DNA of 64,000 nucleotides, from NCBI GenBank assembly GCA_029718625.1, contig CM056376.1:120002222-120066221 (forward strand). The letters are read 5' to 3'. Source of the stretch: Synaphobranchus kaupii (Eukaryota > Chordata > Actinopteri > Anguilliformes > Synaphobranchidae). A program made the translations under genes and the position numbers. Numbering within the stretch: position 1 is the first letter of the stretch; each line of letters starts with the position of its first letter. Below, piece after piece: positions 40 through 47,971 of the stretch. The notes beneath the pieces were generated by a model. It saw only the letters and a program-made list of their open reading frames with translations, made no database searches and was not told the DNA's origin.

Positions 40-640
40 GTTATGGAGCTGCCTCGTTCATCCAATAATCCACATAAACTTCTCAACCCACCCCTAACTT
101 CACCTCCTTCAGCCCTCCTTCAGCTCTCACAGCCTAAGACTTTGCATCATCGTCATCGTCATCATCATCAGCAGGGCGACTGGCACTTCCCCCCCTCCGT
201 GTCAAAGGCTCTCGCTTGTCCCGACTGCGGAGTTTTTCCACATTAGCTCCTCAGTGGTGGAATGAACTTCCCATTCCCCTACGTTCTACTCCAACCCTGC
301 CTGCATTCCGTCGAGGCCTGAAGACACACCTCTTCAGACTCCACCTTGACTGATACCCTCACCTAGGAATATCAGTTCCCTGTTCCCTGTGTTTTCCTGT
401 CTGTTTATTATAGTTTACAATAGTATTTGGAATGGTAGTGTGGTGTTGCTGATTTTCCCACAGCTTACTGTGAACTACAGTCGACGCTCATTGCTAGGGA
501 TAGCTGCTACATTATGTGAAGGATGTGCTTTGCCCTGTCTGTTCTGTAGTGATCTTGATAATGTCTCTGTACGCACTTACTGTACGTCGCTTTGGATAAA
601 AGCGTCTGCTAAATAAATGTAATGTAATGTAATCATACTT
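40..640 (+). mobile_element. 3' end of an L2/CR1-type LINE, decayed
   Basis: Positions about 250-350 decode, with frame breaks, to the usual end of an L2-like reverse-transcriptase ORF: a WWNELP-like block followed by a FRRGLKTHLF-like block. Downstream comes the tail common at the 3' end of fish LINEs and their SINEs (CGCTTTGGATAAAAGCGTCT, about 590-609), ending in short TAATG repeats near 617-634. No intact ORF remains and the 5' part is missing. Orientation is given by the tail. The clade (L2 versus a near relative) is inferred from the tail and C-terminal motif. Confidence 0.7.
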
Positions 641-10265: not shown

Positions 10266-11460
10266 CAGTTGAAGTCGGAAGTTTACACACACTTAGGTTG
10301 AAGTCATTAAAACTAATTTTTAACCACTCCACAGATTTCATGTTAGCAAACTATAGTGTTGGCAAGTCAGTTAGGACTTCTACTTTGTGCATGCCACAAG
10401 TACATTTTCCAACAATTGTTTACAGACAGATTATTTCACTTTTAATTCACTATATCACAATTCCAGTGGGTCAGAAGTTTACATACACTAAGTTGACTGT
10501 GCCTTTAAATTTTTTATATTTGGTTGCATATCCTTTGGCTTTGCATGCCATGACTTCCTGATGTCTGTGACCCAACAACATCAAACTCTTGATATCTTAT
10601 TTTCTGGTACTCTTACAAGCGATACTATAACGTCTCTGCATGGATCTCTATGGGAATTGGGGGGGTGGACTAGATTTAGCTGTAGATTACACTGGAACAG
10701 TATGGAAAACGTGGTTGGCTAAATGGCTCTAAGTCCTCAAGGATCTGCCGTATCAACCAAGCCTTAAATCATCACTCTGCTGCCAGAAATACAGTAGATA
10801 TGGATGGATAACTTGAAGGGTTTCTTCTCCTGACTTATTTTTCAGTTAGAGTTCAATAGGAAAATTTGTCAGGAGAAACAACCCGTAAAGTGATCCATCC
10901 ATATCTACTGTATATCTGGCAGCAGAGTGATGGTTTAAGGCTTGTTTGATACCTCAGACACTTGATGACTTACAGCCATTTTACCAATCATGTATTCCAT
11001 ATCGTTCCAGCATAATTTACAGCTAAATCCCACCCCCCAATTCCCATAGAGATCCATTCAAACGCAGAGACGTTATAGTATCGCTTGTAAGAGTACCAGA
11101 AAATAAGATATCAAGAGTCTTTGATGTTGTTGGGTCACGGACATCAGGAAGTCATGGCATGCAAAGAATCTGCAACCAAATATTAAAAATTTAAAGGCAC
11201 AGTCAACTTAGTGTATGTAAACTTCTGACCCATTGGAATTGTGATATAGTAAACTTCTGACCCACTGGAATTATAATATAGTGAATTAAAAGTGAAATAA
11301 TCTGTCTGTAAACAATTGTTGGAAAAATTACTTGTGTCATGCACAAAGTAGATGTCCTAACTGACTTGCCAACACTATAGTTTGCTAACATGAAATCTGT
11401 GGAGTGGTTAAAAATGAGTTTTAAGGACTTCAACCTAAGTGTATGTAAACTTCCGACTTC
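10266..11460. mobile_element. foldback (palindromic) Tc1 element with Sleeping-Beauty-type IR/DR ends
   Basis: The left end starts at CAGTTGAAGTCGGAAG after TA (10264-10265). It contains the inner direct repeat GTGGGTCAGAAGTTTACATA (about 10466-10485), the IR/DR layout of the salmonid-type Tc1 group. The right end carries the inverse (GTATGTAAACTTCCGACTTC, 11441-11460) but its last few bases are lost. The interior is also inverted around about 10860: arm sequences such as ACTCTTACAAGCGATACTAT (about 10609) recur in inverse near 11077. Each arm is therefore close to 590 bp and no transposase is present. It must have been mobilised in trans. Confidence 0.85.
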
Positions 11461-14400: not shown

Positions 14401-16999
14401 GAGGTTCGTTGCTTGCAGAAGCGGTGCTACAAGGTCATAGATGAGGTAAGAATGTCCAATGTGTGTTTTTTGGACTGACTTTCTTATCAGTCTGATAAAT
14501 GAATGAAGCAGTCCGATAGCCACTTGTTCCTCCTCAGACATCTTAAACAACGTCTTAAACAGGCGGCCTTAAATCTTAGCGTGATCACTAAAACAACAGA
14601 CGTGTCAAAATCCCCTCCTGTGGAACGGCCGTATAACAGCGCGACAACAACTCTCCAAATCTACAAGACAATAGAGTGGAAAACATCAAAGTGGGGGGAG
14701 GCAACAAAGTTACATTTCTACAAAGCAAAAATTAAAACACCCAACTTTTTTTCCCTGTGGGTGTCGAGATATTCTTTCAGAGGCTCGAAGTGCTGTTTTT
14801 TGTCTGTCAGAAGTACCAGGTACTTGGCAACCTCCTCTCACCTCCTACTCCAAACCATCCCACACAATACATGTGCCTCTGCTGTTGATTGCAAAGCACA
14901 CATGGACTGGGACCACCAGACCCCCATTCGGAGAGCCAGGTCCTCACAGGGCAATGCAAATTGCACCAAGATGAGGTCAAAACACAGGCTGACTGACGGC
15001 CGTCACATTTAAACAGCCAGCTTGGGCTCTTTGATTTGGGCGGGTCGGGAGAGGATCGCCACATTTTCAGTGTGTTCCGCATTTCTCCTCCCTCTTGTAA
15101 CCACGCCCCTCTCAGGCCATTTCCATTTCCTCTTGCCGTCCTGCCTTCCGGAAACAGCTAATTCAAGGCCGGGGACCCTTCAGACGGCACTATGCGGTAC
15201 AAGGGCATTGTACGGACATGTGCGAGTGCGCTGTTCTGCGTTCAGGCACGGCCTTCCTGGACCCACATGCTCAATGTTCCCTTTATGATTCATTGATATG
15301 GGATTTCATGCACTTGCATAATGAATATAAAAATGGTTGCAAAATAGGGTCGTGCTCAAAGCTGATGTGCAGTAGCAGAGTAGAATTTATTTGTGCCTTT
15401 GGCTTAAAGGAAATGTACGGCTGCATCAATTGTGCATGTCTTCACAACTCGGTAATCTGTTTCAGATTTATAAAACAATTTCCCCGCCGCCAGTTCCCAG
15501 ATATACACTGTGTTGTCCCAATACCCATTCACACAAAAATTTTGTGAGAAGAGGTGAAGTTTTGGAGGGGCTCCTGTAAAATCATATCAGTCAAGGACTT
15601 AGTACCTCGGGTATCTACCAGACTGGAGAGTTTTGACACCATTTTTCTAGGTTTTGTGTTATTTTTCTGTTTTGCATGCGCCGTTCACTCCAGTATCTCA
15701 TGCCCTGATTGGTTAATCGTGCAGTTAACTTTTAATACCAGTATCTGCCTGTGGTCTATCGTCCCTCCTGTCCTAACACTAATGACTAATGACAGTGTAC
15801 ACAGTACTAATGGGAAAATCAATGTACTCAGCAAACGCGCATTTGATGATGCTAGATCCTCTCACGGGCTAATCTGGCACCTTTTCTTCTCAGGAAGCCA
15901 CTAAGCACACCCTCGTCATGTTGTCAACAGGTGCTGGAGAAGTCTTGTTACGAGCTGTGCGCTAATCTTGACAACACCTCTTGCGTCAGCCATATTTAAC
16001 AATTCATGCTGAAACACTGTAGGTCTAACCTGTGCATAATCGAAAGCAGCAGGCGATTGACTGCGCACAGTAGCCGTTCCTTATTACTGAAGAGAGAAGT
16101 GAATGGCAAGCAACACTCCAACCCTTGCAGACTTGCGTACGTTAAGAGTCACTAGTTGTCAGGGGTGAGGGTGCGTGGGGGGTGTGTGAACAAGTTAGGC
16201 CCAACACAAGGCTGGTCAGCGAGTCACTGTGGTGCATAGGCCTTGATCTGTCTAGAGAAAGTAGAAGATTTGCACCAGATATCTCACCTGAATTGTCATA
16301 TAGATTAATTAAAGAAACAGCAGTTCACACAAAATGTCTTGATAAGCAATATGAGAAAGGAACAGCTACATTTTGTAAGAAATTGTGCATTCTTTCTCTT
16401 TGCTAGCATTGCATCACATGCACCAGATTGATGTGAGGAATAAGCTGTTGTTTCAACGGGTGGTCACGGAACAATCAATAATGTTGCAAATGATAAAACA
16501 TGGACAAAAATCACCAAAAACAAGGGAGCTAAAGACAGCGTTTGTTTGTGCTGGCGGACAGTAATGTACGAAACGAAGATTGTATCGTTGTAGTCTGTTC
16601 ATTTAGCTGCAAATCAAGTACACTGCGCAGCCAGCACAGCCTGTTTCTTGTTATACTGAATCAGATATGAGCCATTGCTTTGGCGTTTTCCTGTCATTAA
16701 GTGACATCAGCTCTCATCGCCTTTCCCCCCAGTCATCCCAGTCATGTGACGTCAATTTCTGTGATTAGGCTGTTCTGTGGGGACCCCGGGATTCTCTGCT
16801 TTCTGCTGTAGGCTATCACTTCTCGCATTAGCACCAGCGCCGCAGAAACTAGCCCAGATAAAGCGCATGAAGATGTGGGGCTCGTAGGGTCACAGCTTAT
16901 CGAGTTTTCCTTTTCTTTTCTCTTGTGGCGTGGAGCCGTTGATGTACAAGTACACCACTTGGCCAGGACCTACCAGTCTATCACGATGCAATTGTTTTG
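11461..16999. other. 5.5 kb gene-poor interval
   Basis: Largely AT-rich from 11.5 to 14.3 kb, of mixed composition from 14.5 to 17 kb. A 169-codon open frame at 14503-15012 and a 116-codon frame at 15554-15904 show no domain, no codon bias and no exon-like flanks that I recognise. No repeat family was assigned. It could hold regulatory DNA, but nothing proves this. Confidence 0.4.
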
Positions 17000-18197
17000 A
17001 CCTTTTAAGTCATACGCTCTGAAGCTAATAGCCAAAGCGCTATCTTTATAAGGCACTATTCATGTGGTGGAACCTCACGGGGACATGCACGGTGCAGGTC
17101 GTGCACGGGTCTTTGAGACGCGGAGGGATCTCCGTGTGCTTGTCGGTCAGCCACATGGAAGCGGGCCGGATTGGGCCGAGCCGGCCCTCGGAATCAAAGC
17201 GAAAAAGATGCAATTGCGGACAAGCCCGAGCCCCGACGCCAGGTTACGGAAAATGTTTGTCAGGGGCGATCCCGCGGCTAAACGTCCAGGCTCCTCTGAA
17301 TAACGTGGGCTTTGTTCCCCAGCCCAGTGTATTATTTAGTTTTCTAGCAGTGATTAATTGAGCTCAGCCTGATTGTCTCAGGAAACAGAGATCAGTGTCA
17401 TTTAAATAATGACAGTGCGCTGTCATCTGATCTCCTGACCAACAGTTTTACAATAGATATGATTTACCAGTACTTGGAAATAGCAAACTCAATCACGGGA
17501 GGTTTTGGGACAGTGACTCATTCTTTCTTATTTTCTAAATTTGTACTGACAGTTTGTTAAATAAAATAATTAAGTTGCATGCCATATCTCCCTTTACCTG
17601 GGAGTCAGGTGTGAAGACAGTCTGGCCAATCAGTAGCACTAATTGTTCAGTTACAATATACTACCTGGGAGAAAAGAAAACCTGGGCTGGATTTGGATTT
17701 GAGGGCCAGATTTGAGTATCCATTCCATGCCATATGTACATAATCAAAATAACTGTAGTGTAAAGCTGTTTAAAGGCATGTGATCTGTTGTCTCTATCAC
17801 CTTGTTAGATTTGGGGTTGGCGTTTAGGAGCTGAGGATCGATATAGAGGTGAATTGGTGGCAAATGAGTGGGTGTGGGGTGGGGGGGTCTGGATGGTGCA
17901 CAATGCAGCCCTCCTGTTCCAATAAAAAAATGAAAAACATTATCTGATTCCTCTGTTGGTCTGCTGGCACTAATCTTTCAGAGGACCCCCAAACAGACAG
18001 GCAGGCATAAGACAGCACACCTCCACTTGTGAAAAGTAAATGGGGGGTGGAGGGGGGTTACGGATGGGGGCTGGTGTTGGTGGTGGTGGTGGTATTGGGG
18101 GGGGGGGGGGGGTCTATATTTCACAAGGCAGAGCCAGCACTCCAATCCGGCAAATTAAACAGAGCACCGTGGGGTTGGTAATTGATAGCACCATCCC
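17000..18197 (+). repeat. segmental duplication, partial copy 1 (left of LTR element)
   Basis: From GACCTTTTAAGTCATACGC the sequence matches 36678-37068 and 40585-40977 almost base for base to about 17395. It then jumps directly to the part corresponding to 39599 onward and continues to the ATCCC at 18193-18197. About 2.5 kb present in the tandem copies is missing, with a two-base AG at the junction. After the LTR element this copy resumes at 29143. Confidence 0.9.
17396..17429. promoter_or_regulatory. double inverted repeat of TGTCA/TGACAG sites, copy 1
   Basis: TGTCATT-TAAAT-AATGACA overlaps ATGACAG-TGCG-CTGTCAT. TGACAG/CTGTCA is the binding motif of TALE homeodomain proteins (MEIS, PREP, TGIF). 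The same 34 bp recur at 39599-39632 and 43504-43537. A regulatory role is inference. Confidence 0.35.
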
Positions 18198-19549
18198 TGT
18201 TACGATCCTGGGAAGGTTTGGACCTAAATGCACGACTGGGAGGCAGATTCAATGAAGGGATGTTTATTTTTAAATTAAGTTTAGGGGTAGTCCCAAAACT
18301 GTACAGGAAAAGGAAAACACAATTATCACACTGGGTAATGTCAGGAAGCCCGGAACGGACTGCTCCAAGCCGGAGCTGGACTTGAGGGTCCGGAACGGGT
18401 TCCAAGCCGGAACTGGACTGGATAGTAGGTGAAGGCAACACCTGGACTGGACTGGAACTGGACCGGGAGGTCCACTCAGGAAACGGGTTCTGGAACGGAT
18501 TTGTTCCAAACCGGAACTGGACTGAAGAGGTAGGTGCACGACTCACACCTGGACAGGACTGGAACTGGACCGGGAGGTCCACTCTGGAACTGGGCTCAGG
18601 AACGGATTGTTCCAAACAGGAACTGGACTGAAGAGGTAGGTGCACGACTCACTACGGCTGGACTGGAACTGGGCCGGGACGACTGCACCGGTACGGGGCA
18701 AAAAGCAGAGGGAGGTTAGTTTGGGAGTAGGCACGGGAAGGACCGGGAGGTTCTCACAGGGGTGCAGGGTTTGACAGGTAGGTAGCTGGTGAAGCACGGC
18801 AGAGCTGGGTAGTGTGGCGTAGCTGCGGTAGGTCCGGTTGGAGCTGACTGGTCTCCAGGGCTCCCGGAACCGTAACCGAAGACCTTGGTGGCTGCTTCGG
18901 CCGGACAGGAACAACTGGAGGGTAGCCAGGTTATAACGCCACCACGGATCCTACACGAGCTGGAGGTGGAGGTACCGCAACACACGCAAACAAACACGGG
19001 GAAAACGAACACTGCAATGGAGGACTGGAAGCCGGGTAAACTGGAGGTTGAAGGAAGACAGGTTAGCTGCATGCAATACTGAAATGACAGGGGAGGTAAA
19101 CTACCAATCTGTAGTTCGCGAGAACTAAACACTGTAAGGGGATAATATCCCACAACCAAGCGAATAGCACTTTTAAAGACCAGGAGCGAATAGCATGAAC
19201 ACCGAGTGAGGATAGTTAACAAACAGTAACAGGGTCAGAACGGTAACACACGTAATGAACCGACAAAGCAGGGGAGACAGCAGGTGGGTTAAATAAGGGA
19301 GTGAGATTGGAATCAACAAGGCACAGGTGCGGAAAGTAACCGGGAGTGCTTGTTAATTAGACAGGTGAGGAATGCAAGAAACGAGAGGGGAAGGTGATAG
19401 GCGGAAACCAAACTGGGAAACAAAGAGCCAAACAGAGGGGAAACGCCCAGCCTGAAGCAGAGGGGAAAACACGGACAAGGGAATCCAACAAGACACGGAG
19501 GGACATGACAAAACCGGGAAAACGGACTGGATGGGAACGGAACGTCACA
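18198..19549 (-). repeat. 3' LTR (element sense)
   Basis: 1,352 bp, near-identical to 27795-29137. It includes an internal tandem duplication of about 107 bp (18439-18545 and 18546-18651, each with a CGGGAGGTCCACTC block) that both LTRs share. TATA (TTATTTAA) is on the minus strand at 19296-19289. Confidence 0.92.
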
Positions 19550-19561
19550 GTACCCCCCCCT
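19550..19561 (-). promoter_or_regulatory. polypurine tract
   Basis: The element-sense sequence AGGGGGGGGTAC lies directly before TGTGACG of the 3' LTR. A G-run plus TAC in this place is the usual plus-strand primer layout in fish gypsy-type elements. Confidence 0.8.
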
Positions 19562-19639
19562 AAAAAGGACGCCTCCTGGCGTCCAACAGAAACACCACCG
19601 GAGGAAGAGGGCAGGAACGTTCAGGAGGTCGGCCACAGT

Positions 19640-19845
19640 GCGGACTGAACCGTACAGGAGGCCAGACGTGGCGCGGGCGGAGCCGCTCAGGAGGCCGGCT
19701 GTGGCGCGGGCGGAACCGCTCAGGAGGCCGGCTGTGGCGCGGGCGGAACCGCTCAGGAGGCCAGCCGCGGCGCGGGCGGAACCGTTCAGGAGGCCAGCCG
19801 CGGCGCGGGCGGAACCGCTCAGGAGGCCGGCTGCGTAGCGGGACT
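19640..19845. repeat. 33-bp array next to the polypurine tract
   Basis: Five to six copies of a unit beginning CGGAACCGCTCAGGAGGCCG, unrelated at first sight to the main 33-bp unit but sharing CAGGAGGC. It lies after the stop of the main frame. Confidence 0.9.
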
Positions 19846-22800
19846 GGAAGAGAGGAATGGAGCGGGACTGAATGACTGGAACGGGGCGGGACTGGATGAC
19901 TGGAACGGGGCGGGACTGGATGACAGGAACGGGGCGGGACTGGATGACAGGAACGGGGCGGGACTGGATGACTGGAACGGGGCGGGACTGGATGACTGGA
20001 ACGAGGCGGGACTGGATGACTGGAACGGGGCGGGACTGGGGGACTGGAACGGGGCGGGACTGGGGGACTGGAACGGGGCGGGACTGGGGGACTGGAACGG
20101 GGCGGGACTGGAACGGGGCGGGACTGGGGGACTGGAACGAGGAGGGACTGGGGGACTGGAACGAGGAGGGACTGGGGGACTGGACCGAGGAGGGACTGGG
20201 GGACTGGAACGAGGAGGGACTGGGGGACTGGAACGAGGAGGGACTGGGGGACGGGAACGAGGAGGGACTGGGGGACTGGAACGAGGAGGGACTGGGGGAC
20301 TGGACCGAGGAGGGACTGGGGGACTGGAACGAGGAGGGACTGGGGGACTGGAACGAGGAGGGACTGGGGGACTGGAACGAGGAGGGACTGGGGGACTGGA
20401 ACGAGGAGGGACTGGGGGACGGGAACGAGGAGGGACTGGGGGACGGGAACGAGGAGGGACTGGGGGACTGGAACGTGGCGGGACGGGGGGGCTGGAACGT
20501 GGCGGGACGGGGGGGCTGGAACGTGGCGGGACGGGGGGGCTGGAAGGGGAACGGACGGGAGGGCTGGAAGGGGAACGGACGGGAGGGCTGAAAGGGGAAC
20601 GGACGGGAGGGCTGGAAGGGGAACGGACGGGAGGGCTGGAAGGGGAACGGACGGGAGGGCTGGAAGGGGAACGGACGGGAGGGCTGGAAGGGGAACGGAC
20701 AGGAGGGCTGGAAGGGGAACGGACAGGAGGGCTGGAAGGGGAACGGACAGGAGGGCTGGAAGGGGACTGGACAGGAACAGCGATGATTACTTCGCCCTGA
20801 AGGGTGGCGACAGCGACTGCATCGCCCAGGAGGTCGGCGACGACATCATCCCGGAGGCGGGCGGCTGGAACGGGACCGGACAGGAACGGCGATGAACGTA
20901 TCGCCCTGGAGGCAGGCGGCGGCGACTGCATCGCCCTGGAGGCAGGAGGCGTCGACTGCATCGCCCAGGAAGGAGGAGACGGCGACTGCATCGCCCTGGA
21001 AGCAGGAGGCGGCGACGACTGCGTCGCTCTGGAAGCAGGAGGCGAAGACGCCTGCATCGCCCTGGGAGCAGGAGGCGGCGACGACTGCAACGCCCTGGGA
21101 TCAGGAGGCGGCGACGACTGCATCGCCCTGGAAGCAGGAGGCGGCGACGACTGCATCGCCCTGGAAGCAGGAGACGGCGACGACTGCATCGCCTTGGGAG
21201 CAGGAGGCGGCGACGACTGCATCGCCCTGGAAGCAGGAGGCGGCGACGACTGCATCGCCCTGGGAGCAGGAAGCGGCGCCTGCATTGCTCTGGAAGCAGG
21301 AGGCAGCGACGACTGCGTCGCTCTGGAAGCAGGAGGCGGCGATGACTGCATCGCCCTGGAAGCAGGAGGCGGGGATGACTGCATCGCCCTGGAAGCAGGA
21401 GGCGGCGACGACTGCATCGCCCTGGAAGCAGGAGGCGGCGACGACTGCATCGCCCTGGAAGCAGGAGGCGGCGACGACTGCATCGCCTTGGGAGCAGGAG
21501 GCGGCGACGACTGCATCGCCCAGGAAGGAGGAGACGGCGACTGCATCGCCCTGGAAGCAGGAGGCGGCGACGACTGCGTCGCTCTGGAAGCAGGAGGCGA
21601 AGACGACTGCATCGCCCTGGGAGCAGGAGGCGGCGACGACTGCAACGCCCTGGGAGCAGGAGGCGGCGACGACTGCATCGCCCTGGAAGCAGGAGGCGGC
21701 GACGACTGGATCGCCCTGGAAGCAGGAGGCGGCGACGACTGCATCGCCTTGGGAGCAGGAGGCGGCGACGACTGCATCGCCTTGGGAGCAGGAGGCGGCG
21801 ACGACTGCGTCGCTGTGGAAGCAGGAGGCGAAGACGACTGCATCGCCCTGGGAGCAGGAGGCGGCGACGACTGCAACGCCCTGGGATCAGGAGGCGGCGA
21901 CGACTGCATCGCCCTGGAAGCAGGAGGCGGCGACGACTGCATCGCCCTGGAAGCAGGAGACGGCGACGACTGCATCGCCTTGGGAGCAGGAGGCGGCGAC
22001 GACTGCATCGCCCTGGAAGCAGGAGGCGGCGACGACTGCATCGCCCTGGGAGCAGGAAGCGGTGCCTGCATTGCTCTGGAAGCAGGAGGCGGCGACGACT
22101 GCGTCGCTCTGGAAGCAGGAGGCGGCGATGACTGCATCGCCCTGGAAGCAGGAGGCGGGGATGACTGCATCGCCCTGGAAGCAGGAGGCGGCGACGACTG
22201 CATCGCCCTGGAAGCAGGAGGCGGCGACGACTGCATCGCCCTGGAAGCAGGAGGCGGCGACGACTGCATCGCCTTGGGAGCAGGAGGCGGCGACGACTGC
22301 ATCGCCCAGGAAGGAGGAGACGGCGACTGCATCGCCCTGGAAGCAGGAGGCGGCGACGACTGCGTCGCTCTGGAAGCAGGAGGCGAAGACGACTGCATCG
22401 CCCTGGGAGCAGGAGGCGGCGACGACTGCAACGCCCTGGGAGCAGGAGGCGGCGACGACTGCATCGCCCTGGAAGCAGGAGGCGGCGACGACTGCATCGC
22501 CCTGGAAGCAGGAGGCGGCGACGACTGCATCGCCTTGGGAGCAGGAGGCGGCGACGACTGCATCGCCTTGGGAGCAGGAGGCGGCGACGACTGCATCGCC
22601 CTGGAAGCAGGAGGCGGCGACGACTGCATCGCCCTGGAAGCAGGAGGCGGCGACGACTGCATCGCCCTGGGAGCAGGAGGCGGCGACGACTGCATCGCCT
22701 TGGGAGCAGGAGGCGGCGACGACTGCATCGCCCTGGGAGAAGGAGGCGGCGACGACTGCATCGCCCTGGGAGCAGGAAGCGGCGCCTGCATTGCTCTGGA

Positions 22801-25800
22801 AGCAGGAGGCGGCGACGACTGCATCGCCCTGGAAGCAGGAGGCGGCGACGACTGCATCGCCTTGGGAGCAGGAGGCGGCGACGACTGCATCGCCCTGGAG
22901 GCAGGAGGCGGCGACGACTGCATCGCCCTGGAGGCAGGAGGCGGCGACGGCTGCGTCGCCCTGGAAACAGGAGGCGGCGACTGCTGCATCGCCCAGGAAA
23001 CAGGAAGCGGCAACTGCTGCGTCGCCCTGGAAACAGGAGGCGGCGACTGCTGCATCGCCCAGGAAACAGGAGGCGGCGACTGCATCGCCCTGGAAACAGG
23101 AGGCGGCGACTGCTGCATCGCCCAGGAAACAGGAGGCGGCGACGACTGCATCGCCCCGGAAGCAGGAGGCGGCGATGACTGCATCGCCCTGGAGGCAGGA
23201 GGCGGCGACGGCTGCGTCGCCCTGGAAACAGGAGGCGGCGACTGCTGCATCGCCCAGGAAACAGGAAGCGGCAACTGCTGCGTCGCCCTGGAAACAGGAG
23301 GCGGCGATGACTGCATCGCCCTGGAAGCAGGAGGCGGGGATGACTGCATCGCCCTGGAAGCAGGAGGCGGCGACGACTGCATCGCCCCGGAAGCAGGAGG
23401 CGGCGATGACTGCATCGCCCTGGAGGCAGGAGGCGGCGACGGCTGCGTCGCCCTGGAAACAGGAGGCGGCGACTGCTGCATCGCCCAGGAAACAGGAAGC
23501 GGCAACTGCTGCGTCGCCCTGGAAACAGGAGGCGGCGATGACTGCATCGCCCTGGAAGCAGGAGGCGGGGATGACTGCATCGCCCTGGAAGCAGGAGGCG
23601 GCGACGACTGCATCGCCCTGGGAGCAGGAAGCGGCGCCTGCATTGCTCTGGAAGCAGGAGGCGGCGACGACTGCGTCGCTCTGGAAGCAGGAGGCGGGGA
23701 TGACTGCATCGCCCTGGAAGCAGGAGGCGGCGACGACTGCATCGCCCTGGAAGCAGGAGGCGGCGACGACTGCATCGCCCTGGAAGCAGGAGGCGGCGAC
23801 GACTGCATCGCCTTGGGAGCAGGAGGCGGCGACGACTGCATCGCCCAGGAAGGAGGAGACGGCGACTGCATCGCCCTGGAAGCAGGAGGCGGCGACGACT
23901 GCGTTGCTCTGGAAGCAGGAGGCGAAGACGACTGCATCGCCCTGGGAGCAGGAGGCGGCGACGACTGCAACGCCCTGGGAGCAGGAGGCGGCGACGACTG
24001 CATCGCCCTGGAAGCAGGAGGCGGCGACGACTGCATCGCCCTGGAAGCAGGAGGCGGCGACGACTGCATCGCCCTGGAAGCAGGAGGCGGCGACGACTGC
24101 ATCGCCTTGGGAGCAGGAGGCGGCGACGACTGCATCGCCTTGGGAGCAGGAGGCGGCGACGACTGCATCGCCCTGGAAGCAGGAGGCGGCGACGACTGCA
24201 TCGCCCTGGAAGCAGGAGGCGGCGACGACTGCATCGCCCTGGGAGCAGGAGGCGGCGACGACTGCATCGCCTTGGGAGCAGGAGGCGGCGACGACTGCAT
24301 CGCCCTGGGAGAAGGAGGCGGCGACGACTGCATCGCCCTGGGAGCAGGAAGCGGCGCCTGCATTGCTCTGGGAGCAGGAAGCGGCGCCTGCATAGCTCTG
24401 GAAGCAGGAGGCGGCGACGACTGCATCGCCCTGGAAGCAGGAGGCGGCGACGACTGCATCGCCTTGGGAGCAGGAGGCGGCGACGACTGCATCGCCCTGG
24501 AGGCAGGAGGCGGCGACGACTGCATCGCCCTGGAGGCAGGAGGCGGCGACGGCTGCGTCGCCCTGGAAACAGGAGGCGGCGACTGCTGCATCGCCCAGGA
24601 AACAGGAAGCGGCAACTGCTGCGTCGCCCAGGAAACAGGAGGCGCCGACTGCATCGCCCTGGAAACAGGAGGCGGCGACTGCTGCATCGCCCAGGAAACA
24701 GGAGGCGGCGACGACTGCATCGCCCCGGAAGCAGGAGGCGGCGATGACTGCATCGCCCTGGAGGCAGGAGGCGGCGACGGCTGCGTCGCCCTGGAAACAG
24801 GAGGCGGCGACTGCTGCATCGCCCAGGAAACAGGAAGCGGCAACTGCTGCGTCGCCCTGGAAACAGGAGGCGGCGATGACTGCATCGCCCTGGAAGCAGG
24901 AGGCGGGGATGACTGCATCGCCCTGGAAGCAGGAGGCGGCGACGACTGCATCGCCCTGGAAGCAGGAGGCGGCGACGACTGCATCGCCCTGGAAGCAGGA
25001 GGCGGCGACGACTGCATCGCCTTGGGAGCAGGAGGCGGCGACGACTGCATCGCCCAGGAAGGAGGAGACGGCGACTGCATCGCCCTGGAAGCAGGAGGCG
25101 GCGACGACTGCGTCGCTCTGGAAGCAGGAGGCGAAGACGACTGCATCGCCCTGGGAGCAGGAGGCGGCGACGACTGCAACGCCCTGGGAGCAGGAGGCGG
25201 CGACGACTGCATCGCCCTGGAAGCAGGAGGCGGCGACGACTGCATCGCCCTGGAAGCAGGAGGCGGCGACGACTGCATCGCCTTGGGAGCAGGAGGCGGC
25301 GACGACTGCATCGCCTTGGGAGCAGGAGGCGGCGACGACTGCATCGCCCTGGAAGCAGGAGGCGGCGACGACTGCATCGCCCTGGAAGCAGGAGGCGGCG
25401 ACGACATCGCCCTGGGAGCAGGAGGCGGCGACGACTGCATCGCCTTGGGAGCAGGAGGCGGCGACGACTGCATCGCCCTGGGAGAAGGAGGCGGCGACGA
25501 CTGCATCGCCCTGGGAGCAGGAAGCGGCGCCTGCATTGCTCTGGGAGCAGGAAGCGGCGCCTGCATAGCTCTGGAAGCAGGAGGCGGCGACGACTGCATC
25601 GCCCTGGAAGCAGGAGGCGGCGACGACTGCATCGCCTTGGGAGCAGGAGGCGGCGACGACTGCATCGCCCTGGAAGCAGGAGGCGGCGACGACTGCATCG
25701 CCCTGGAAGCAGGAGGCGGCGACGACTGCATCGCCTTGGGAGCAGGAGGCGGCGACGACTGCATCGCCTTGGGAGCAGGAGGCGGCGACGACTGCATCGC

Positions 25801-27792
25801 CTTGGGAGCAGGAGGCGGCGACGACTGCATCGCCCTGGAAGCAGGAGGCGGCGACGACTGCATCGCCCTGGAAGCAGGAGGCGGCGACGACATCGCCCTG
25901 GGAGCAGGAGGCGGCGACGACTGCATCGCCTTGGGAGCAGGAGGCGGCGACGACTGCATCGCCCTGGGAGAAGGAGGTGGCGACGACTGCATCGCCCTGG
26001 GAGCAGGAAGCGGCGCCTGCATTGCTCTGGGAGCAGGAAGCGGCGCCTGCATAGCTCTGGAAGCAGGAGGCGGCGACGACTGCATCGCCCTGGAAGCAGG
26101 AGGCGGCGACGACTGCATCGCCTTGGGAGCAGGAGGCGGCGACGACTGCATCGCCCTGGAGGCAGGAGGCGGCGACGACTGCATCGCCCTGGAGGCAGGA
26201 GGCGGCGACGGCTGCGTCGCCCTGGAAACAGGAGGCGGCGACTGCTGCATCGCCCAGGAAACAGGAAGCGGCAACTGCTGCGTCGCCCTGGAAACAGGAG
26301 GCGGCGACTGCTGCATCGCCCAGGAAACAGGAGGCGGCGACTGCATCGCCCTGGAAACAGGAGGCGGCGACTGCTGCATCGCCCAGGAAACAGGAGGCGG
26401 CGACGACTGCATCGCCCCGGAAGCAGGAGGCGGCGACGACTGCATCGCCCTGGAGGCAGGAGGCGGCGACGGCTGCGTCGCCCTGGAAACAGGAGGCGGC
26501 GACTGCTGCATCGCCCAGGAAACAGGAAGCGGCAACTGCTGCGTCGCCCTGGAAACAGGAGGCGGCGACGGCTGCGTCGCCCTGGAAGCAGGAGGCGGCG
26601 ACGACTGCATCGCCCTGGAGGCAGGAGGCGGCGACGGCTGCGTCGCCCTGGAAACAGGAGGCGGCGACCGCTACATCGCCCAGGAAACAGGAAACGGCAA
26701 CTGCTGCGTCGCCCTGGAAACAGGAGGCGGCGACGGCTGCGTCGCCCTGGAAACAGGAGGCGGCGACGGCTGCGTCGCCCTGGAAACAGGAGGCGGCGAC
26801 TGCATCGCCCTGGAAACAGGAGGCGGCGACTGCTGCATCGCCCAGGAAACAGGAGGCGGCGACGGCTGCATCGCCCCGGAAGCAGGAGGCGGCGACGGCT
26901 GCGTCGCCCTGGAAACAGGAGGCGGCGACTGCTGCGTCGCCCAGGAAACAGGAGGCGGCGACTGCTGCATCGCCCAGGAAACAGGAAGCGGCAACTGCTG
27001 CATCGCCCTGGAAACAGGAAGCGGCGACTGCTGCATCGCCCAGGAAACAGGAAGCGGCAACTGCTGCGTTGCCCTGGAAGCAGGAGGCGGCGACGGCTGC
27101 GTCGCCCTGGAAACAGGAGGCGGCGACTGCTGCATCGCCCAGGAAACAGGAGGCGGCGACTGCCGCGTCGACCTGGAAACAGGTGGCGGTGACTGCCGTG
27201 TCGCCCTGGAAACAGGAAGCGGCGACTGCCGCGTCGCCCTGGAAGCAGGAGGCGGCGACGGCTGCGTCGCCCTGGAAACAGGAGGCGGCGACGGCTGCGT
27301 CGCCCTGGAAGCCGGCGGCGGCGGCTGCGTCGCCCTGGAAGCCGGCGGCGGCGGCTGCGTCGCCCTGGAAGCCGGCGGCGGCGGCTGCGTCGCCCTGGAA
27401 GCCGGCGGCGGCGGCTGCGTCGCCCTGGAAGCCGGCGGCGGCGGCTGCGTCGCCCTGGAAGCCGGCGGCGGCGGCTGCGTCGCCCTGGAAGCCGGCGGCG
27501 GCGGCTGCGTCGCCCTGGAAGGCGGCGGCGGCTGCGTCGCCCTGGAAGCCGGCCGGGGGGGACGACGACGGCGTCGCCTAGGAGACTGGCCTGTGTTGAC
27601 GGCGAATGCCTCGCCCTGAAGGCCGGCGATGATTGCATCGCCCGGGCCTTGGTTCCCACCCAGGCAATGGCTCAGGTGCTCGTCCAGAGCATCCTGGCGG
27701 GCAAGTTCGTGCTCGTACTGCCTTACTGCATGGCCGAAGGCGGGGTGGATCAGGGACAAGAAGTCGGCTAGGTCCTTATCTGGTCGGTTCAT
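19819..27792 (-). CDS. candidate repeat-protein frame of the LTR element, one internal stop
   Basis: One frame runs from an ATG two bases inside the LTR border (27792) to TGA at 19819-19821, about 2,657 codons, broken only by TAG at 26673-26671 where neighbouring repeat units read CAG. The first ~60 residues are unique (start [20 protein letters not shown], then a charged, helix-like stretch). Next come an Arg run, [10 protein letters not shown] units, and then about 200 11-residue units of the type [11 protein letters not shown]. The C-terminal part has SPSSPPVR-, PPRSSPPV- and [12 protein letters not shown] units. The frame is also open upstream into the LTR as far as an ATG at 28233, which could add 147 codons. 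There is no catalytic motif. It could be a degenerate gag-like protein or a non-coding array that happens to be open. Confidence 0.45.
19860..20790. repeat. 24-bp minisatellite arrays (three sub-types)
   Basis: Units of 24 bp: ACTGGATGACTGGAACGGGG+CGGG (about 19870-20030), ACTGGGGGACTGGAACGAGG+AGGG (about 20030-20470), then GGAACGGACGGGAGGGCTGG+AAGG (about 20540-20770). They merge into one another, consistent with progressive divergence from one unit. Confidence 0.95.
20790..27300. repeat. 33/30-bp minisatellite array
   Basis: About 200 tandem units with the consensus theme GCAGGAGGCGGCGACGAC + TGCATCGCCCTGGAA. Units are 33 bp, or 30 bp when one GAC triplet is missing. Every length variant seen is a multiple of three. 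Marker variants (for example the GGAAGGAGGAGACGGC unit at about 20968, 21531, 22308, 23848 and 25054) recur, showing larger blocks duplicated within the array. G+C is high and TA is nearly absent, which explains open frames on both strands. Confidence 0.97.
27300..27555. repeat. 30-bp sub-array at the gag-proximal end
   Basis: About eight almost perfect copies of a 30-bp unit (GTCGCCCTGGAAGCCGGCGG + CGGCGGCTGC). It is the most homogeneous part of the whole array, which suggests the most recent expansion. Confidence 0.95.
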
Positions 27793-27793
27793 T
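27783..27793 (-). promoter_or_regulatory. candidate self-priming primer-binding site
   Basis: In the element's sense, one G separates the LTR's CA end from AATGAACCGAC. This 11-mer is the exact reverse complement of GTCGGTTCATT at the predicted RNA start in the 3' LTR (19264-19254). In the 5' LTR the matching site has one transition (28849). No TGG-initial tRNA-type PBS is present. In Tf1 and sushi-like elements the first 11 nt of the transcript anneal to a PBS beside the LTR, so the arrangement fits that known mechanism. The site overlaps the first ATG of the interior frame. Confidence 0.7.
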
Positions 27794-27794
27794 C

Positions 27795-29137
27795 TGTTAC
27801 GATCCTGGGAAGGTTTGGACCTAAATGCACGACTGGGAGGCAGATTCAATGAAGGGATGTTTATTTTTAAATTAAGTTTAGGGGTAGTCCCAAAACTGTA
27901 CAGGAAAAGGAAAACACAATTATCACACTGGGTAATGTCAGGAAGCCCGGAACGGACTGCTCCAAGCCGGAGCTGGACTTGAGGGTCCGGAACGGGTTCC
28001 AAGCCGGAACTAGTAGGTGAAGGCAACACCTGGACTGGACTGGAACTGGACCGGGAGGTCCACTCAGGAAACGGGTTCTGGAACGGATTTGTTCCAAACC
28101 GGAACTGGACTGAAGAGGTAGGTGCACGACTCACACCTGGACAGGACTGGAACTGGACCGGGAGGTCCACTCTGGAACTGGGCTCAGGAACGGATTGTTC
28201 CAAACAGGAACTGGACTGAAGAGGTAGGTGCACGACTCACTACGGCTGGACTGGAACTGGGCCGGGACGACTGCACCGGTACGGGGCAAAAAGCAGAGGG
28301 AGGTTAGTTTGGGAGTAGGCACGGGAAGGACCGGGAGGTTCTCACAGGGGTGCAGGGTTTGACAGGTAGGTAGCTGGTGAAGCACGGCAGAGCTGGGTAG
28401 TGTGGCGTAGCTGCGGTAGGTCCGGTTGGAGCTGACTGGTCTCCAGGGCTCCCGGAACCGTAACCGAAGACCTTGGTGGCTGCTTCGGCCGGACAGGAAC
28501 AACTGGAGGGTAGCCAGGTTATAACGCCACCACGGATCCTACACGAGCTGGAGGTGGAGGTACCGCAACACACGCAAACAAACACGGGGAAAACGAACAC
28601 TGCAATGGAGGACTGGAAGCCGGGTAAACTGGAGGTTGAAGGAAGACAGGTTAGCTGCATGCAATACTGAAATGACAGGGGAGGTAAACTACCAATCTGT
28701 AGTTCGCGAGAACTAAACACTGTAAGGGGATAATATCCCACAACCAAGCGAATAGCACTTTTAAAGACCAGGAGCGAATAGCATGAACACCGAGTGAGGA
28801 TAGTTAACAAACAGTAACAGGGTCAGAACGGTAACACACGTAATGAACTGACAAAGCAGGGGAGACAGCAGGTGGGTTAAATAAGGGAGTGAGATTGGAA
28901 TCAACAAGGCACAGGTGCGGAAAGTAACCGGGAGTGCTTGTTAATTAGACAGGTGAGGAATGCAAGAAACGAGAGGGGAAGGTGATAGGCGGAAACCAAA
29001 CTGGGAAACAAAGAGCCAAACAGAGGGGAAACACCCAGCCTGAAGCAGAGGGGAAAACACGGACAAGGGAATCCAACAAGACACGGAGGGACATGACAAA
29101 ACCGGGAAAACAGACTGGATGGGAACGGAACGTCACA
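27795..29137 (-). repeat. 5' LTR (element sense)
   Basis: 1,343 bp, TGTGACG...GTAACA in the element's sense. It differs from the 3' LTR by a 9-bp deletion after 28010 and, by eye, three transitions (28849, 29032, 29111), all of which look like CpG decay. Probable layout: U3 29137-28853, TATA at 28884-28877, transcript start near 28852, a long R, and AATAAA on the minus strand near 27865-27860. Confidence 0.92.
28877..28884 (-). promoter_or_regulatory. TATA box of the 5' LTR
   Basis: TTATTTAA on the minus strand. The 11-nt block that pairs with the primer site starts 32 nt from its first base, the expected place for transcript start. Confidence 0.6.
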
Positions 29138-30184
29138 ATCCCCTTTCATACAGTAAATACATGTCAAACAGTGGGGACACTCAGGCCAGATTACCCAAGA
29201 TTTGCAACACCGGAGGATTACCCAATAATGCCTTCCTTTGATCTCTCTCCACTTAGCCTTTGATTCCCTGTAATTATGACCTTTTAAGTCATACGCTCTG
29301 AAGCTAATAGCCAAAGCGCTATCTTTATAAGGCACTATTCATGTGGTGGAACCTCACGGGGACATGCACGGTGCAGGTCGTGCACGGGTCTTTGAGACGC
29401 GGAGGGATCTCCGTGTGCTTGTCGGTCAGCCACATGGAAGCGGGCCGGATTGGGCCGAGCCGGCCCTCGGAATCAAAGCGAAAAAGATGCAATTGCGGAC
29501 AAGCCCGAGCCCCGACGCCAGGTTACGGAAAATGTTTGTCAGGGGCGATCCCGCGGCTAAACGTCCAGGCTCCTCTGAATAACGTGGGCTTTGTTCCCCA
29601 GCCCAGTGTATTATTTAGTTTTCTAGCAGTGATTAATTGAGCTCAGCCTGATTGTCTCAGGAAACAGAGATCAGAGGTACACTTTGATGAAAATGAGGTT
29701 TCAGCAGAGCTACTTCATCTCAGGACCCACAGGCATCTGCAGTTTTTTTTATTTTGGACCAGCCCCTGAGAATGCTTGTGTGGGGTGGTGCACGGGTAGG
29801 TGTGCGAGGATATTGCAATGAGGTCATGAAAAAAATAAAAAACTGTAAAATAAATGATAATAAATAAACAAACAGATGTTATTTACCTTCAAGGGGTGTT
29901 CTTTCCCCATTCATCCCCAATTGTGAACGCCTAGGCATGTTCACGCTACGACGTTCATCACAAACACCGTCAATTACGTAGAGTGCACACGCGTGTGCTC
30001 TCCTCTGAAGCGTGTGATGTCAGCTGCCGCTTGTTATCACACCACAGTTCGCAAAGTCGGCCTTGTGAACTCATGAGTCTGAGGAAGACGGGGGGGGGCG
30101 ACTCTGTCATAACAGTAACACGGCCACCCCTGGGTGATGCTAGAGCCAATTGTATATCACCCTGTGAGGTGTCTGAAAACAGAA
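29138..30184 (+). repeat. segmental duplication, partial copy 1 (right of LTR element)
   Basis: Begins with the ATCCC target duplication and matches 36538-37583 and 40446-41491 closely. It includes the CpG-rich block with the short frames at 29341-29640. It breaks off at AAAACAGAAC, after which the tandem copies continue into a SINE while this copy passes into the 167-bp repeat at 30185. Confidence 0.92.
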
Positions 30185-30351
30185 CTGTAAGAGGGGAGTC
30201 AAAGGCTGCCATGTGTGAAGATGCTTCAAAGGACCAGAGGGCCTTGTAATGAAACAATATAACTCTGACTTCCTTTGGGTTTTCATCCCATTTGTTCTCA
30301 AGGATGTTCTCACCTGGAAGTGACTGTGATAGGAGGAAGTTGGACTGTTTG
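30185..30351 (+). repeat. 167-bp direct repeat, left copy
   Basis: From CTGTAAGAGGGGAGTC to GTTGGACTGTTTG, matching 36322-36488 over the same length. The two copies bracket a 6 kb segment and lie at breakpoints of the duplicated blocks, so they may have mediated the rearrangement. Confidence 0.9.
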
Positions 30352-36494: not shown

Positions 36495-39400
36495 GCAAAG
36501 TAAACAGAGCACCGTGGGGTTGGTAATTGATAGCACCATCCCCTTTCATACAGTAAATACATGTCAAACAGTGGGGACACTCAGGCCAGATTACCCAAGA
36601 TTTGCAACACCGGAGGATTACCCAATAATGCCTTCCTTTGATCTCTCTCCACTTAGCCTTTGATTCCCTGTAATTATGACCTTTTAAGTCATACGCTCTG
36701 AAGCTAATAGCCAAAGCGCTATCTTTATAAGGCACTATTCATGTGGTGGAACCTCACGGGGACATGCACGGTGCAGGTCGTGCACGGGTCTTTGAGACGC
36801 GGAGGGATCTCCGTGTGCTTGTCGGTCAGCCACATGGAAGCGGGCCGGATTGGGCCGAGCCGGCCCTCGGAATCAAAGCGAAAAAGATGCAATTGCGGAC
36901 AAGCCCGAGCCCCGACGCCAGGTTACGGAAAATGTTTGTCAGGGGCGATCCCGCGGCTAAACGTCCAGGCTCCTCTGAATAACGTGGGCTTTGTTCCCCA
37001 GCCCAGTGTATTATTTAGTTTTCTAGCAGTGATTAATTGAGCTCAGCCTGATTGTCTCAGGAAACAGAGATCAGAGGTACACTTTGATGAAAATGAGGTT
37101 TCAGCAGAGCTACTTCATCTCAGGACCCACAGGCATCTGCAGTTTTTTTTATTTTGGACCAGCCCCTGAGAATGCTTGTGTGGGGTGGTGCACGGGTAGG
37201 TGTGCGAGGATATTGCAATGAGGTCATGAAAAAAATAAAAAAATAAAAAATAAATGATAATAAATAAACAAACAGATGTTATTTACCTTCAAGGGGTGTG
37301 TTCTTTCCCCATTCATCCCCAATTGTGAACGCCTAGGCATGTTCACGCTACGACGTTCATCACAAACACCGTCAATTAAGTAGAGTGCACACGCGTGTGC
37401 TCTCCTCTGAAGCGTGTGATGTCAGCTGCCGCTTGTTATCACACCACAGTTCGCAAAGTCGGCCTTGTGAACTCATGAGTCTGAGGAAGACGGGGGGGGC
37501 GACTCTGTCATAACAGTAACACGGCCACCCCTGGGTGATGCTAGAGCCAATTGTATATCACCCTGTGAGGTGTCTGAAAACAGAACAACAGGCTGATGGC
37601 TCACAACACATAGTTAAAATGGCATTGCCAGTAAGCCGTGTGGTGCAGTCCATAGGGCAGCCAACACTCGAGGCACCCCCCCCCCCAACCCCCCACCTGG
37701 GTGGGTGTTTGATTCCCCGCCTTGGCACTCTCTCAGCCGTGGTCCCCTCTCTAGCTGTTACCACTGATGAATAAAGCAAACATAAATTTTAAATAAAAAA
37801 CTGAACGGAGGGCAGCCTGTATCGCTCTCCCTTAAAAAAAATGCCACTGCTTCCCATGTTTTATGGAGCTTGGAGGGTGTCTGCATGTACCGGTCTTGAA
37901 CCAGCTTAAACATTCGCACACAATGGTTTCGGTTAGAATGGGGCAATTTGGGAACCATCTACTTGATTGAAGGCTGAGTCTCTGTCTCAAATGATGGAGT
38001 GGTCATGCTCAAGGGGATTACCCGAATGGCTGTTTATGTGATTCCATTGAAGTAGCTAAAGCTTGAGGGGGAATGGGTACAAAAGGCACTCCTCTGGGGC
38101 CCGCTTCCCTGTCATCGTTCAGAGGCAGAGAAGCTACTTTAATCTAGCGTGGCCGGGCCGGACGGTTGTTGATGTCGGCATTGAGTGTTGCTTTCATGTC
38201 GATATTAGTTCAGTGCCTGAGTGCAGACGAGCCTTTTTTAACTTTTGCTCTTCGGGTCGGGAGGGTGTGAGCTAGGGCGCTCATCCTCCGAAGAGCGGTC
38301 AGCTGCCCGTCGCTGCTTCTCACTCTGTAATCCAGGAACTGTTTTATATAGTTACCACACACTTGATGAGGTGGTCAAACAGCCAGATGTGCTATAGAGT
38401 GATAAGACAGGGTTTAGACACTGCCAATGCACGTGCTTTACAGGGTTTACAGTCATGTATTGAACCCAGTTATACCCACAATGCATATAGGAATAAGAAC
38501 CAATGTGTGATTTTACTTTACACAATTCGATAACTAAGTTATAGTCGTGTTGTTTTACTCATCGGAGAGTCAACGCTAGACTCTGGTTGGACATACTGAA
38601 CACGTGATGACGACTAGCTGATGCATAGCCTACGCAATGTTTTTTGGCCGCTGAAATAAAGTTTATAGATTAGTTTTCTTGTGACGTCACACTGAATATG
38701 TGCAGACGGAAGGCAAAAGATCACCAGAGACTGTTTTAGCACACACACACACACATACACTATATGTTTAAACTCTATTTTCATAAATCCACATATTTAC
38801 AGTATTATTCCATTTCTGTAAGGATAAGACATTCTCAGTTTCTATGCTAATGTAATTTCTGCAAGGCTATTTCACTGTCTGCCACTCTCCAAAATAACAC
38901 AAGCTTTCTTTAAACGGTGTGTGCTCGACTCCAACAAAGTACTGAACCTGACTCAGGGATCCCCTGCAGGAAGCCAAGCAACTGTTTACTGTAAACCGGC
39001 CTGGCCTGCCTTCACTCGGCCTTAAATAAAGTGTCATCTTTGATCCGCCTGCCTATCAGAAATGAAAGCATAATTAAAAGCCTGGATTCCACCCGGGCCT
39101 AGGACGGGTTCTTCAGCCTATCATCCAGCAGTGTCCTCTTCTCCGTTTTACCTGAATGTGGAGCCGTGGCGCACACGCAAACCAGCGGCTATGGGTTCTT
39201 CTCCAAACTGGGGCATTGCACCTCCACGCACAATGCGTCTCAGGGATATCGTTCCGGCGTACAGAGAAAGTGATATCTCTCTCCGCGTCGCTTGCCCCTT
39301 TCTGCCAGGGTGTCTTCCTCTGGCTGGCCCATTTAGTTCGGGTTACCGTCGAGGGGCACACCCTGTGTCCTCACCTCCTCACTGCGCTCCTTTGCCAGTC

Positions 39401-40402: not shown

Positions 40403-41523
40403 GCAAAGTAAACAGAGCACCGTGGGGTTGGTAATTGATAGCACCATCCCCTTTCATACAGTAAATACATGTCAAACAGTGGGGACACTCAGGCCAGATT
40501 ACCCAAGATTTGCAACACCGGAGGATTACCCAATAATGCCTTCCTTTGATCTCTCTCCACTTAGCCTTTGATTCCCTGTAATTATGACCTTTTAAGTCAT
40601 ACGCTCTGAAGCTAATAGCCAAAGCGCTATCTTTATAAGGCACTATTCATGTGGTGGAACCTCACGGGGACATGCACGGTGCAGGTCGTGCACGGGTCTT
40701 TGAGACGCGGAGGGATCTCCGTGTGCTTGTCGGTCAGCCACATGGAAGCGGGCCGGATTGGGCCGAGCCGGCCCTCGGAATCAAAGCGAAAAAGATGCAA
40801 TTGCGGACAAGCCCGAGCCCCGACGCCAGGTTACGGAAAATGTTTGTCAGGGGCGATCCCGCGGCTAAACGTCCAGGCTCCTCTGAATAACGTGGGCTTT
40901 GTTCCCCAGCCCAGTGTATTATTTAGTTTTCTAGCAGTGATTAATTGAGCTCAGCCTGATTGTCTCAGGAAACAGAGATCAGAGGTACACTTTGATGAAA
41001 ATGAGGTTTCAGCAGAGCTACTTCATCTCAGGACCCACAGGCATCTGCAGTTTTTTTTATTTTGGACCAGCCCCTGAGAATGCTTGTGTGGGGTGGTGCA
41101 CGGGTAGGTGTGCGAGGATATTGCAATGAGGTCATGAAAAAAATAAAAAACTGTAAAATAAATGATAATAAATAAACAAACAGATGTTATTTACCTTCAA
41201 GGGGTGTTCTTTCCCCATTCATCCCCAATTGTGAACGCCTAGGCATGTTCACGCTACGACGTTCATCACAAACACCGTCAATTAAGTAGAGTGCACACGC
41301 ATGTGCTCTCCTCTGAAGCGTGTGATGTCAGCTGCCGCTTGTTATCACACCACAGTTCGCAAAGTCGGCCTTGTGAACTCATGAGTCTGAGGAAGACGGG
41401 GGGGGGCGACTCTGTCATAACAGTAACACGGCCACCCCTGGGTGATGCTAGAGCCAATTGTATATCACCCTGTGAGGTGTCTGAAAACAGAACAACAGGC
41501 TGATGGCTCACAACACATAGTTA

Positions 41524-41707
41524 AAATGGCATTGCCAGTAAGCCGTGTGGTGCAGTCCATAGGGCAGCCAACACTCGAGGCACCCCCCCCCAACCCCCCA
41601 CCTGGGTGGGTGTTTGATTCCCCGCCTTGGCACTCTCTCAGCCGTGGTCCCCTCTCTAGCTGTTACCACTGATGAATAAAGCAAACATAAATTTTAAATA
41701 AAAAACT
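41524..41707 (+). mobile_element. tRNA-derived SINE (in tandem copy 3)
   Basis: The duplicate of the SINE at 37618-37802, differing mainly in the length of the C-run. It was inserted before the tandem duplication. Confidence 0.7.
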
Positions 41708-47917: not shown

Positions 47918-47971
47918 AGGCTCCGATGTAGGATCAGAGGCCTGCTGCCTGGCCGGCGCCCTGATAAGGTG

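What the first reader, a model, noticed from the sequence alone, without database searches (positions are those of the whole stretch)
18198..29137. LTR retrotransposon whose whole body is a coding-compatible minisatellite
The element has matched LTRs, a perfect 5-bp TSD, PPT, TATA and empty sites in sister duplicons, so it is a genuine, recent retrotransposition product. Yet about 8 kb between the LTRs is 24-, 30- and 33-bp tandem repeat, with no pol. Known non-autonomous LTR elements (LARD, TRIM) are unique-sequence or empty; a body made of an in-frame proline-rich minisatellite is not a class I know. It may be a new kind of retroelement passenger: a repeat-protein gene carried by LTRs, or a satellite spreading by reverse transcription.
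Basis: partly seen in the sequence, partly recalled or inferred. Interest (0 to 1): 0.9.

Follow-up and report, generated by a model that had tools for sequence, protein, structure and literature searches.

The report
Jumping element filled with minisatellite repeats
In what looks like a fish genome, a recently inserted LTR retrotransposon (a copy-and-paste jumping element) carries almost nothing between its ends except about 8,000 bases of short tandem repeats, so it must borrow its copying enzymes and may help to spread repeat DNA.

Summary
Window 18198-29137 is an LTR element with a 5-bp target duplication (ATCCC), LTRs differing by 3 substitutions and one 9-bp indel, and three empty sites in sister duplicons. 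It lies on the minus strand. Of the 8245 bp between the LTRs, 94-98% is three tandem arrays, mainly 204 units of 33/30 bp. No gag or pol domain was found in the 16 pieces scanned.

New here: nt 2-12 after the 5' LTR exactly complement 11 nt lying 31 nt downstream of a TATA-like box, the arrangement of self-primed (Tf1-type) elements.

Most array structure looks older than the insertion, so the array probably travelled through RNA. The protein reading is weak: all minus-strand frames are nearly open, changes show no synonymous bias, repeat phase shifts, and there is an in-frame stop.

Plant Ogre elements carry embedded minisatellites, some without pol (PMC3305785, PMC7004042), so I call this a new variant of a known kind. 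The decisive host-genome search could not be run: the genome search did not complete 13 of 13 times.

The parts
18193..18197 (.). Target site duplication ATCCC, left copy
18198..19549 (-). 3' LTR (1352 bp); holds the 11-nt self-primer sequence at LTR nt 286-296 that matches the PBS exactly
19550..19566 (-). Polypurine tract region (TTTTTAGGGGGGGGTAC) directly before the 3' LTR
19605..19842 (-). Second 33-bp array (about 7 units); carries TGA repeatedly in the ATG frame, among them that frame's stop at 19821-19819
19838..20775 (-). 24-bp array; an 8-bp loss near 20104 shifts the repeat phase
20780..27655 (-). Main 33/30-bp array: uniform core about 20887-27553, degenerate and phase-shifted units at both edges
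26674..27792 (-). ATG-started ORF of 373 codons: about 46 non-repeat codons, then repeats (proline-rich), up to TAG 26673-26671
19822..26670 (-). Same frame beyond the TAG, open for 2283 codons
27783..27793 (-). Putative self-priming PBS (AATGAACCGAC), nt 2-12 after the 5' LTR, overlapping the ATG
27795..29137 (-). 5' LTR (1343 bp): TATTTAA at nt 255, presumed RNA start/self-primer at nt 286, AATAAA at nt 1273; one CpG-type change lies inside the self-primer
29138..29142 (.). Target site duplication ATCCC, right copy
40403..40498 (+). One of three empty sites (others 36495-36590 and 49221-49316), 1 mismatch in 96 bp each

Best explanation
A recently inserted, non-autonomous LTR retrotransposon on the minus strand of a probable teleost genome. 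Shown: LTRs, TSD, PPT-like tract, empty sites, an 11-nt PBS complementary to the presumed RNA start, and a body 94-98% tandem repeat without a recognisable gag or pol. Inferred: transcription starts at about LTR nt 286; the RNA 5' end pairs with the PBS beside U5 and primes its own first strand, as in Tf1; reverse transcriptase, integrase and probably Gag come from an autonomous Ty3-type relative with the same ends; a short repeat next to the start of the first ORF grew by slippage, unequal exchange or template switching in earlier generations and took the place of gag-pol; the grown array was then copied into this site through RNA, so the LTRs act as a vehicle for a minisatellite. The array need not encode a working protein.
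For: TSD, LTR match and three empty sites. PPT-like tract. PBS: 11 of 11 nt complementary to 3' LTR nt 286-296, 31 nt after TATTTAA; of 105,784 background 16-nt positions none had a 10- or 11-nt match in the start zone, 24 had 9 nt. No TGG, the mark of a tRNA-type PBS (recalled), in the first 30 internal nt. The predicted duplex also pairs the last six U5 bases with TGTTAC just after the self-primer. LTR ends TGTGACG...CGTAACA fit the published rGmr1 fish motifs (PMC3601003 Table 3, passage). Repeat content. No Pfam match above cut-off in 16 pieces. Array mostly older than the insertion: 14.9% of 6368 core 300-bp windows have a partner at 99.67% or better, against 85% of pairs expected at the LTR divergence; median best partner 99.0%; longest repeat block 1016 bp at 97.8%, none exact over 600 bp or more.
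Against: No second copy or autonomous partner was seen (genome search did not complete). The 5' LTR self-primer has one mismatch, so this copy may prime poorly. The minimum-energy fold of the 1118-nt leader lacks the self-primer:PBS pairing; duplex energy is reached by 45 of 1000 shuffles (3' LTR letters) and 199 of 1000 (5' LTR letters); an 11-nt complement anywhere in the LTR occurs for 0.5% of 16,496 random 25-mers, so only its position is telling (all). The first about 46 codons match no known gag. 14.9% of core windows are exact duplicates, so some growth or homogenisation is young. If repeat units mutate faster than LTRs, the age argument weakens.
Confidence: 0.6

Rival explanations
1. 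A one-off: a copy of an LTR family that normally carries gag-pol; this copy or its immediate source lost pol, and a small native repeat ballooned, partly after insertion. There is no lineage of minisatellite-bodied elements.
For: Only one copy is in view. 14.9% of core windows are exact duplicates of another place in the core.
Against: 85% of core windows lack a partner at 99.67% or better although the LTRs are 99.8% identical. Three different arrays fill the body.
Confidence: 0.22
2. A repeat-protein gene carried by LTRs: the ATG ORF is translated into a proline-rich repeat protein that serves the element or the host.
For: ATG 2 nt behind the 5' LTR. One stop in the ATG frame over 2656 sense codons. 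Within the core the repeat keeps one phase; its indels sum to multiples of 3 nt, in 10 short unit types (31 of 204 units, parsed in frame, so one search is the independent test).
Against: Other frames are as open: in the core, frame 1 has no stop, frame 2 has two, the ATG frame one. 7 of 29 changes synonymous, 8.2 expected; codon position 3 is the least variable. Phase shifts at both core edges and by 8 bp in the 24-bp array. Triplet-like steps in the unit favour 3-bp slippage (inference). Pfam Cornifin matches in two other frames of the 24-bp array (E 6.2e-06 and 2.8e-04) stay below the cut-off, 26.9 and 21.6 of 34.8 bits, and look compositional.
Confidence: 0.12
3. Assembly artefact: array length or content is wrong.
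For: A 6.9-kb GC-rich array is hard to assemble; no reads were available.
Against: No N in the window. 41 distinct sequences among the 173 33-bp units, no exact repeat of 600 bp or more, complete LTRs and matching TSD on both sides.
Confidence: 0.06

Closest known systems
Plant Ogre-type Ty3 elements with embedded minisatellites (soybean Gmr9/GmOgre; Lathyrus Ogres)
   Same: Tandem minisatellites inside an LTR element, several families, variable length; some copies explained as non-autonomous without pol (PMC3305785 abstract, background, discussion; PMC7004042 passages).
   Different: There the array lies downstream of the coding region (several hundred bp in soybean per the background section). 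Here it starts about 46 codons after the first ATG and makes up 94-98% of the body; host probably a fish.
Tf1/sushi self-primed retrotransposons
   Same: PBS right behind the 5' LTR complementary to the presumed RNA 5' end (passages of PMC4600332, PMC10085805); 3' LTR end fits CNTNACA (PMC3601003 Table 3).
   Different: No pol or chromodomain to classify; 5' end TGTGACG does not fit the Sushi motif TGTYANR.
Fish rGmr1 Ty3 elements
   Same: LTR ends fit TGTNANR / CGTNACA (PMC3601003 Table 3, passage).
   Different: No pol, so the defining IN-before-RT order cannot be seen; short motifs are weak evidence.
LARD, TRIM and TR-GAG non-autonomous LTR elements (definitions recalled; TR-GAG papers seen only as a listing)
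   Same: LTR ends without pol, mobilised in trans.
   Different: LARD interiors are not tandem arrays, TRIMs are small, TR-GAGs carry a gag domain that was not found here.
SVA elements of hominoids (recalled, no call)
   Same: A GC-rich VNTR makes up much of a non-autonomous retroelement.
   Different: SVA is a LINE-mobilised non-LTR composite; this element has LTRs, 5-bp TSD, PPT and PBS.

Membership tests
LTR retrotransposon (insertion product) | Paired near-identical LTRs, short TSD, PPT, PBS, empty site | tested here: met
   PBS function inferred
Autonomous Ty3/gypsy element | gag and pol domains | tested here: not met
   16 translated pieces, none above a Pfam cut-off and no RT, integrase, protease or gag family listed
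Tf1/sushi group | PBS complementary to the RNA 5' end | tested here: met
   11 of 11 nt with 3' LTR letters, one mismatch with 5' LTR letters; the RNA start itself is inferred; leader fold does not show the pairing
Tf1/sushi group | Published Sushi LTR end motifs TGTYANR / CNTNACA | tested here: not met
   5' end TGTGACG fails at Y; 3' end CGTAACA fits; not filed as a member
Tf1/sushi group | RT-IN phylogeny and chromodomain | not testable with these tools
   no pol in this copy, no relative found
rGmr1 group | LTR ends TGTNANR / CGTNACA | tested here: met
rGmr1 group | Integrase before RT in pol | not testable with these tools
   no pol present
TR-GAG | A gag domain between the LTRs | tested here: not met
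   no Pfam gag family; residues 1-72 had no protein at E<=1 in the two size classes searched of a database that holds fish transposon proteins
LARD | Long non-coding interior without pol (recalled) | tested here: inconclusive
   long and without pol, but made of tandem repeats
Ogre-type element with minisatellite | Array downstream of the coding region of an element that keeps coding domains | tested here: not met
   array begins about 46 codons after the first ATG; no domain remains
Repeat-protein gene | Excess of synonymous change in the coding frame | tested here: not met
   7 of 29 synonymous, 8.2 expected; none of six frames shows an excess

The most novel reading that the evidence does not exclude
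A lineage of self-primed, non-autonomous LTR elements in fish whose only cargo is minisatellite: the two ends, an 11-nt primer/PBS pair and the PPT are all the cis sequence needed, the rest of the RNA is free to become tandem repeat, and a minisatellite spreads by reverse transcription.
Probability: 0.35. Interest if true: 0.65.

Novelty: new variant of a known kind. Interest (0 to 1): 0.45.

Why it matters
If other copies exist, this is a natural case of a retroelement cut down to its cis-acting ends, with nearly all else replaced by minisatellite. It would make a question testable: are dispersed minisatellites seeded by reverse transcription, and do the arrays grow during reverse transcription or in the chromosome? 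It would extend the plant link between LTR elements and satellites to a vertebrate.

Tried and rejected
Coding function of the array: stops by frame, synonymous change in six frames, repeat phase; not supported. RNA structure of the array: one 264-nt core piece folds no better than shuffles on either strand (z 0.44 and 0.66). tRNA-type PBS: no TGG in the first 30 nt. Origin of the arrays from the LTR: no BLAST match at E<=1e-3 for any of the three arrays; the 24-bp array has only short weak matches (23-31 bp, E 4e-4) to the degenerate edge of the main array, and the second 33-bp array has none. Similarity of the first 60 codons to solved structures: two matches at E 1.7 and 2.3 (ribosomal protein S11), taken as chance. 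Relatives elsewhere: 46 pattern stretches in viral contigs and 587 in genome contigs, none confirmed; three exact DNA patterns in viral contigs, 0 matches each. Those collections are viral or prokaryotic, so this says little about fish. Literature: ten answered searches (one search returned no paper). Among the listings I noticed no vertebrate LTR element with a minisatellite body; only open-licence papers are held, listings were cut to 10-20 rows, and I read passages or sections of six papers (PMC4600332, PMC10085805, PMC7004042, PMC7599744, PMC3601003, PMC3305785), none whole.

Full report
OBSERVATION. The LTRs are 18198-19549 and 27795-29137; they differ by three substitutions and one 9-bp indel. 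All three substitutions are at CpG, with the changed base in the 27795-29137 copy. ATCCC lies on both sides, and the joined 96-bp flank is found at 36495, 40403 and 49221 with one mismatch each. The right flank matches a sister duplicon over 1048 bp with 2 mismatches, and another with 4 mismatches and 3 gap positions; the left flank fits less well (812 bp with 14 mismatches and 72 gap positions). Duplication and insertion thus look similarly young (0.19% and 0.22% divergence).

ORIENTATION. TTTTTAGGGGGGGGTAC lies directly before the LTR at 18198-19549 on the minus strand; TATTTAA (nt 255) and AATAAA (nt 1273 in the 5' LTR, 1282 in the 3' LTR) are on the same strand. The element runs from 29137 down to 18198.

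PRIMING. The internal region begins GAATGAACCGACC. Nt 2-12 are the exact complement of nt 286-296 of the 3' LTR, 31 nt after the start of the TATA-like box; the 5' LTR has one CpG-type change there. Among 105,784 background 16-nt positions (window outside the element, both strands) none had a 10- or 11-nt complement in the zone 20-42 nt after that box, and 24 had 9 nt. This is the arrangement of self-primed elements first shown for Tf1 (passages: PMC4600332, PMC10085805). The duplex prediction also pairs the last six bases of U5 (GTAACA) with TGTTAC shortly after the self-primer, which recalls the published multi-duplex leader; its significance was not tested separately. Against: the minimum-energy fold of the 1118-nt leader lacks the self-primer:PBS pairing; duplex energies are reached by 45 of 1000 shuffles with 3' LTR letters and 199 of 1000 with 5' LTR letters; an 11-nt complement anywhere in the LTR occurs for 0.5% of 16,496 random 25-mers.

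BODY. Tandem Repeats Finder rows cover 7791 of 8245 bp; with degenerate edge units, limits set by hand, 8047 bp. The main array has 204 units after a first degenerate stretch: 173 of 33 bp, 30 of 30 bp, 1 of 27 bp, with 41 distinct sequences among the 173. A 24-bp array and a second 33-bp array follow.

CODING. The ATG at 27792 is 2 nt behind the 5' LTR. Its frame runs 373 codons to a TAG, then 2283 codons to a TGA at 19821. In the core (20887-27553) frame 1 has no stop, frame 2 has two (21889, 21103) and the ATG frame one. In a minimum spanning tree of the 41 variants, 29 of 40 edges are single-step and were scored; 7 are synonymous in the ATG frame, 8.2 expected, and none of six frames shows an excess. 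The 11 longer edges and the 31 shortened units were left out. Codon position 3 is the least variable. For frame keeping: within the core the phase stays constant and indels sum to multiples of three. Against: the degenerate edges are in another phase, and the 24-bp array loses 8 bp near 20104. I see no good evidence for a selected protein.

AGE OF THE ARRAY. For 6368 windows of 300 bp in the core the best other place in the core was taken: 14.9% reach 99.67% identity or more (all of these are exact), median 99.0%; at the LTR divergence 85% of pairs would differ by at most one base. The longest repeat block is 1016 bp at 97.8%; the best long one 580 bp at 98.8%; exact repeats reach 400 but not 600 bp. 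Most of the array structure is probably older than the insertion, unless units mutate several times faster than LTRs; some is young.

DOMAINS AND RELATIVES. Sixteen translated pieces of the element were scanned against Pfam (2, 6, 8). None reaches a curated cut-off; the best is Cornifin, a proline-rich family, at 26.9 of 34.8 bits in a frame of the 24-bp array. No gag, protease, RT or integrase family is listed. Residues 1-72 of the ATG ORF shared words with 14 and 18 candidates in the two size classes and gave none at E<=1. The same database gave 3711 matches at E<=1e-10 for a neighbouring LINE protein; the best listed is from trout and most named ones are fish. Fish proteins are thus present, though retroelement genes often go unannotated.

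HOST. These matches and a UnaL2 3' element point to a teleost; the species is unknown to me.

COMPARISON. Soybean Gmr9/GmOgre has five interleaved minisatellites between the coding region and the LTR, up to 149 repeats at a locus (PMC3305785). Lathyrus Ogres carry such arrays, and some are explained as non-autonomous copies lacking pol (PMC7004042 passages). A minisatellite inside an LTR element is therefore known. What differs is its extent, its place just behind the first ATG, the absence of any recognisable coding domain, the self-priming arrangement and the probable vertebrate host. LTR ends fit the fish rGmr1 motifs better than Sushi (PMC3601003 Table 3), while self-priming is a Tf1/sushi trait; the clade stays open.

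LIMIT. A search of the host genome, which would decide between a lineage and a single oddity, could not be run: 13 of 13 requests to the genome search did not complete.

Noticed in passing
36495-39996 and 40403-43902: Two duplicons of 3.5 kb, 99.6% identical; parts recur at 16995-18197, 29134-30351 and 48805-49403.
   Followed up: partly
44691-48809 (-): Non-LTR retrotransposon in three adjacent ORFs: RVT_1 (E 2.4e-33) and endonuclease matches; closest listed protein 63% identical, from rainbow trout. It abuts a duplicon piece at 48805.
   Followed up: partly
10271-11460: A 1.2-kb stretch matching its own reverse complement at 85% (long foldback); pieces recur at 1386-1751.
   Followed up: no
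568-622 (+): UnaL2 LINE 3' element (Rfam RF00436, 56.3 bits).
   Followed up: no
18399-18679 and 28026-28267: The LTR holds a 107-bp tandem repeat (2.7 and 2.3 copies); the 9-bp LTR length difference lies in or next to it.
   Followed up: partly
55798-56451 (+): Reverse transcriptase fragment (RVT_1, E 8.1e-08).
   Followed up: no
19550-27794: CpG observed/expected is 0.96 in the body, 0.64 in the 5' LTR and 0.52 in the rest of the window, although CpG is where the LTR copies have changed.
   Followed up: no
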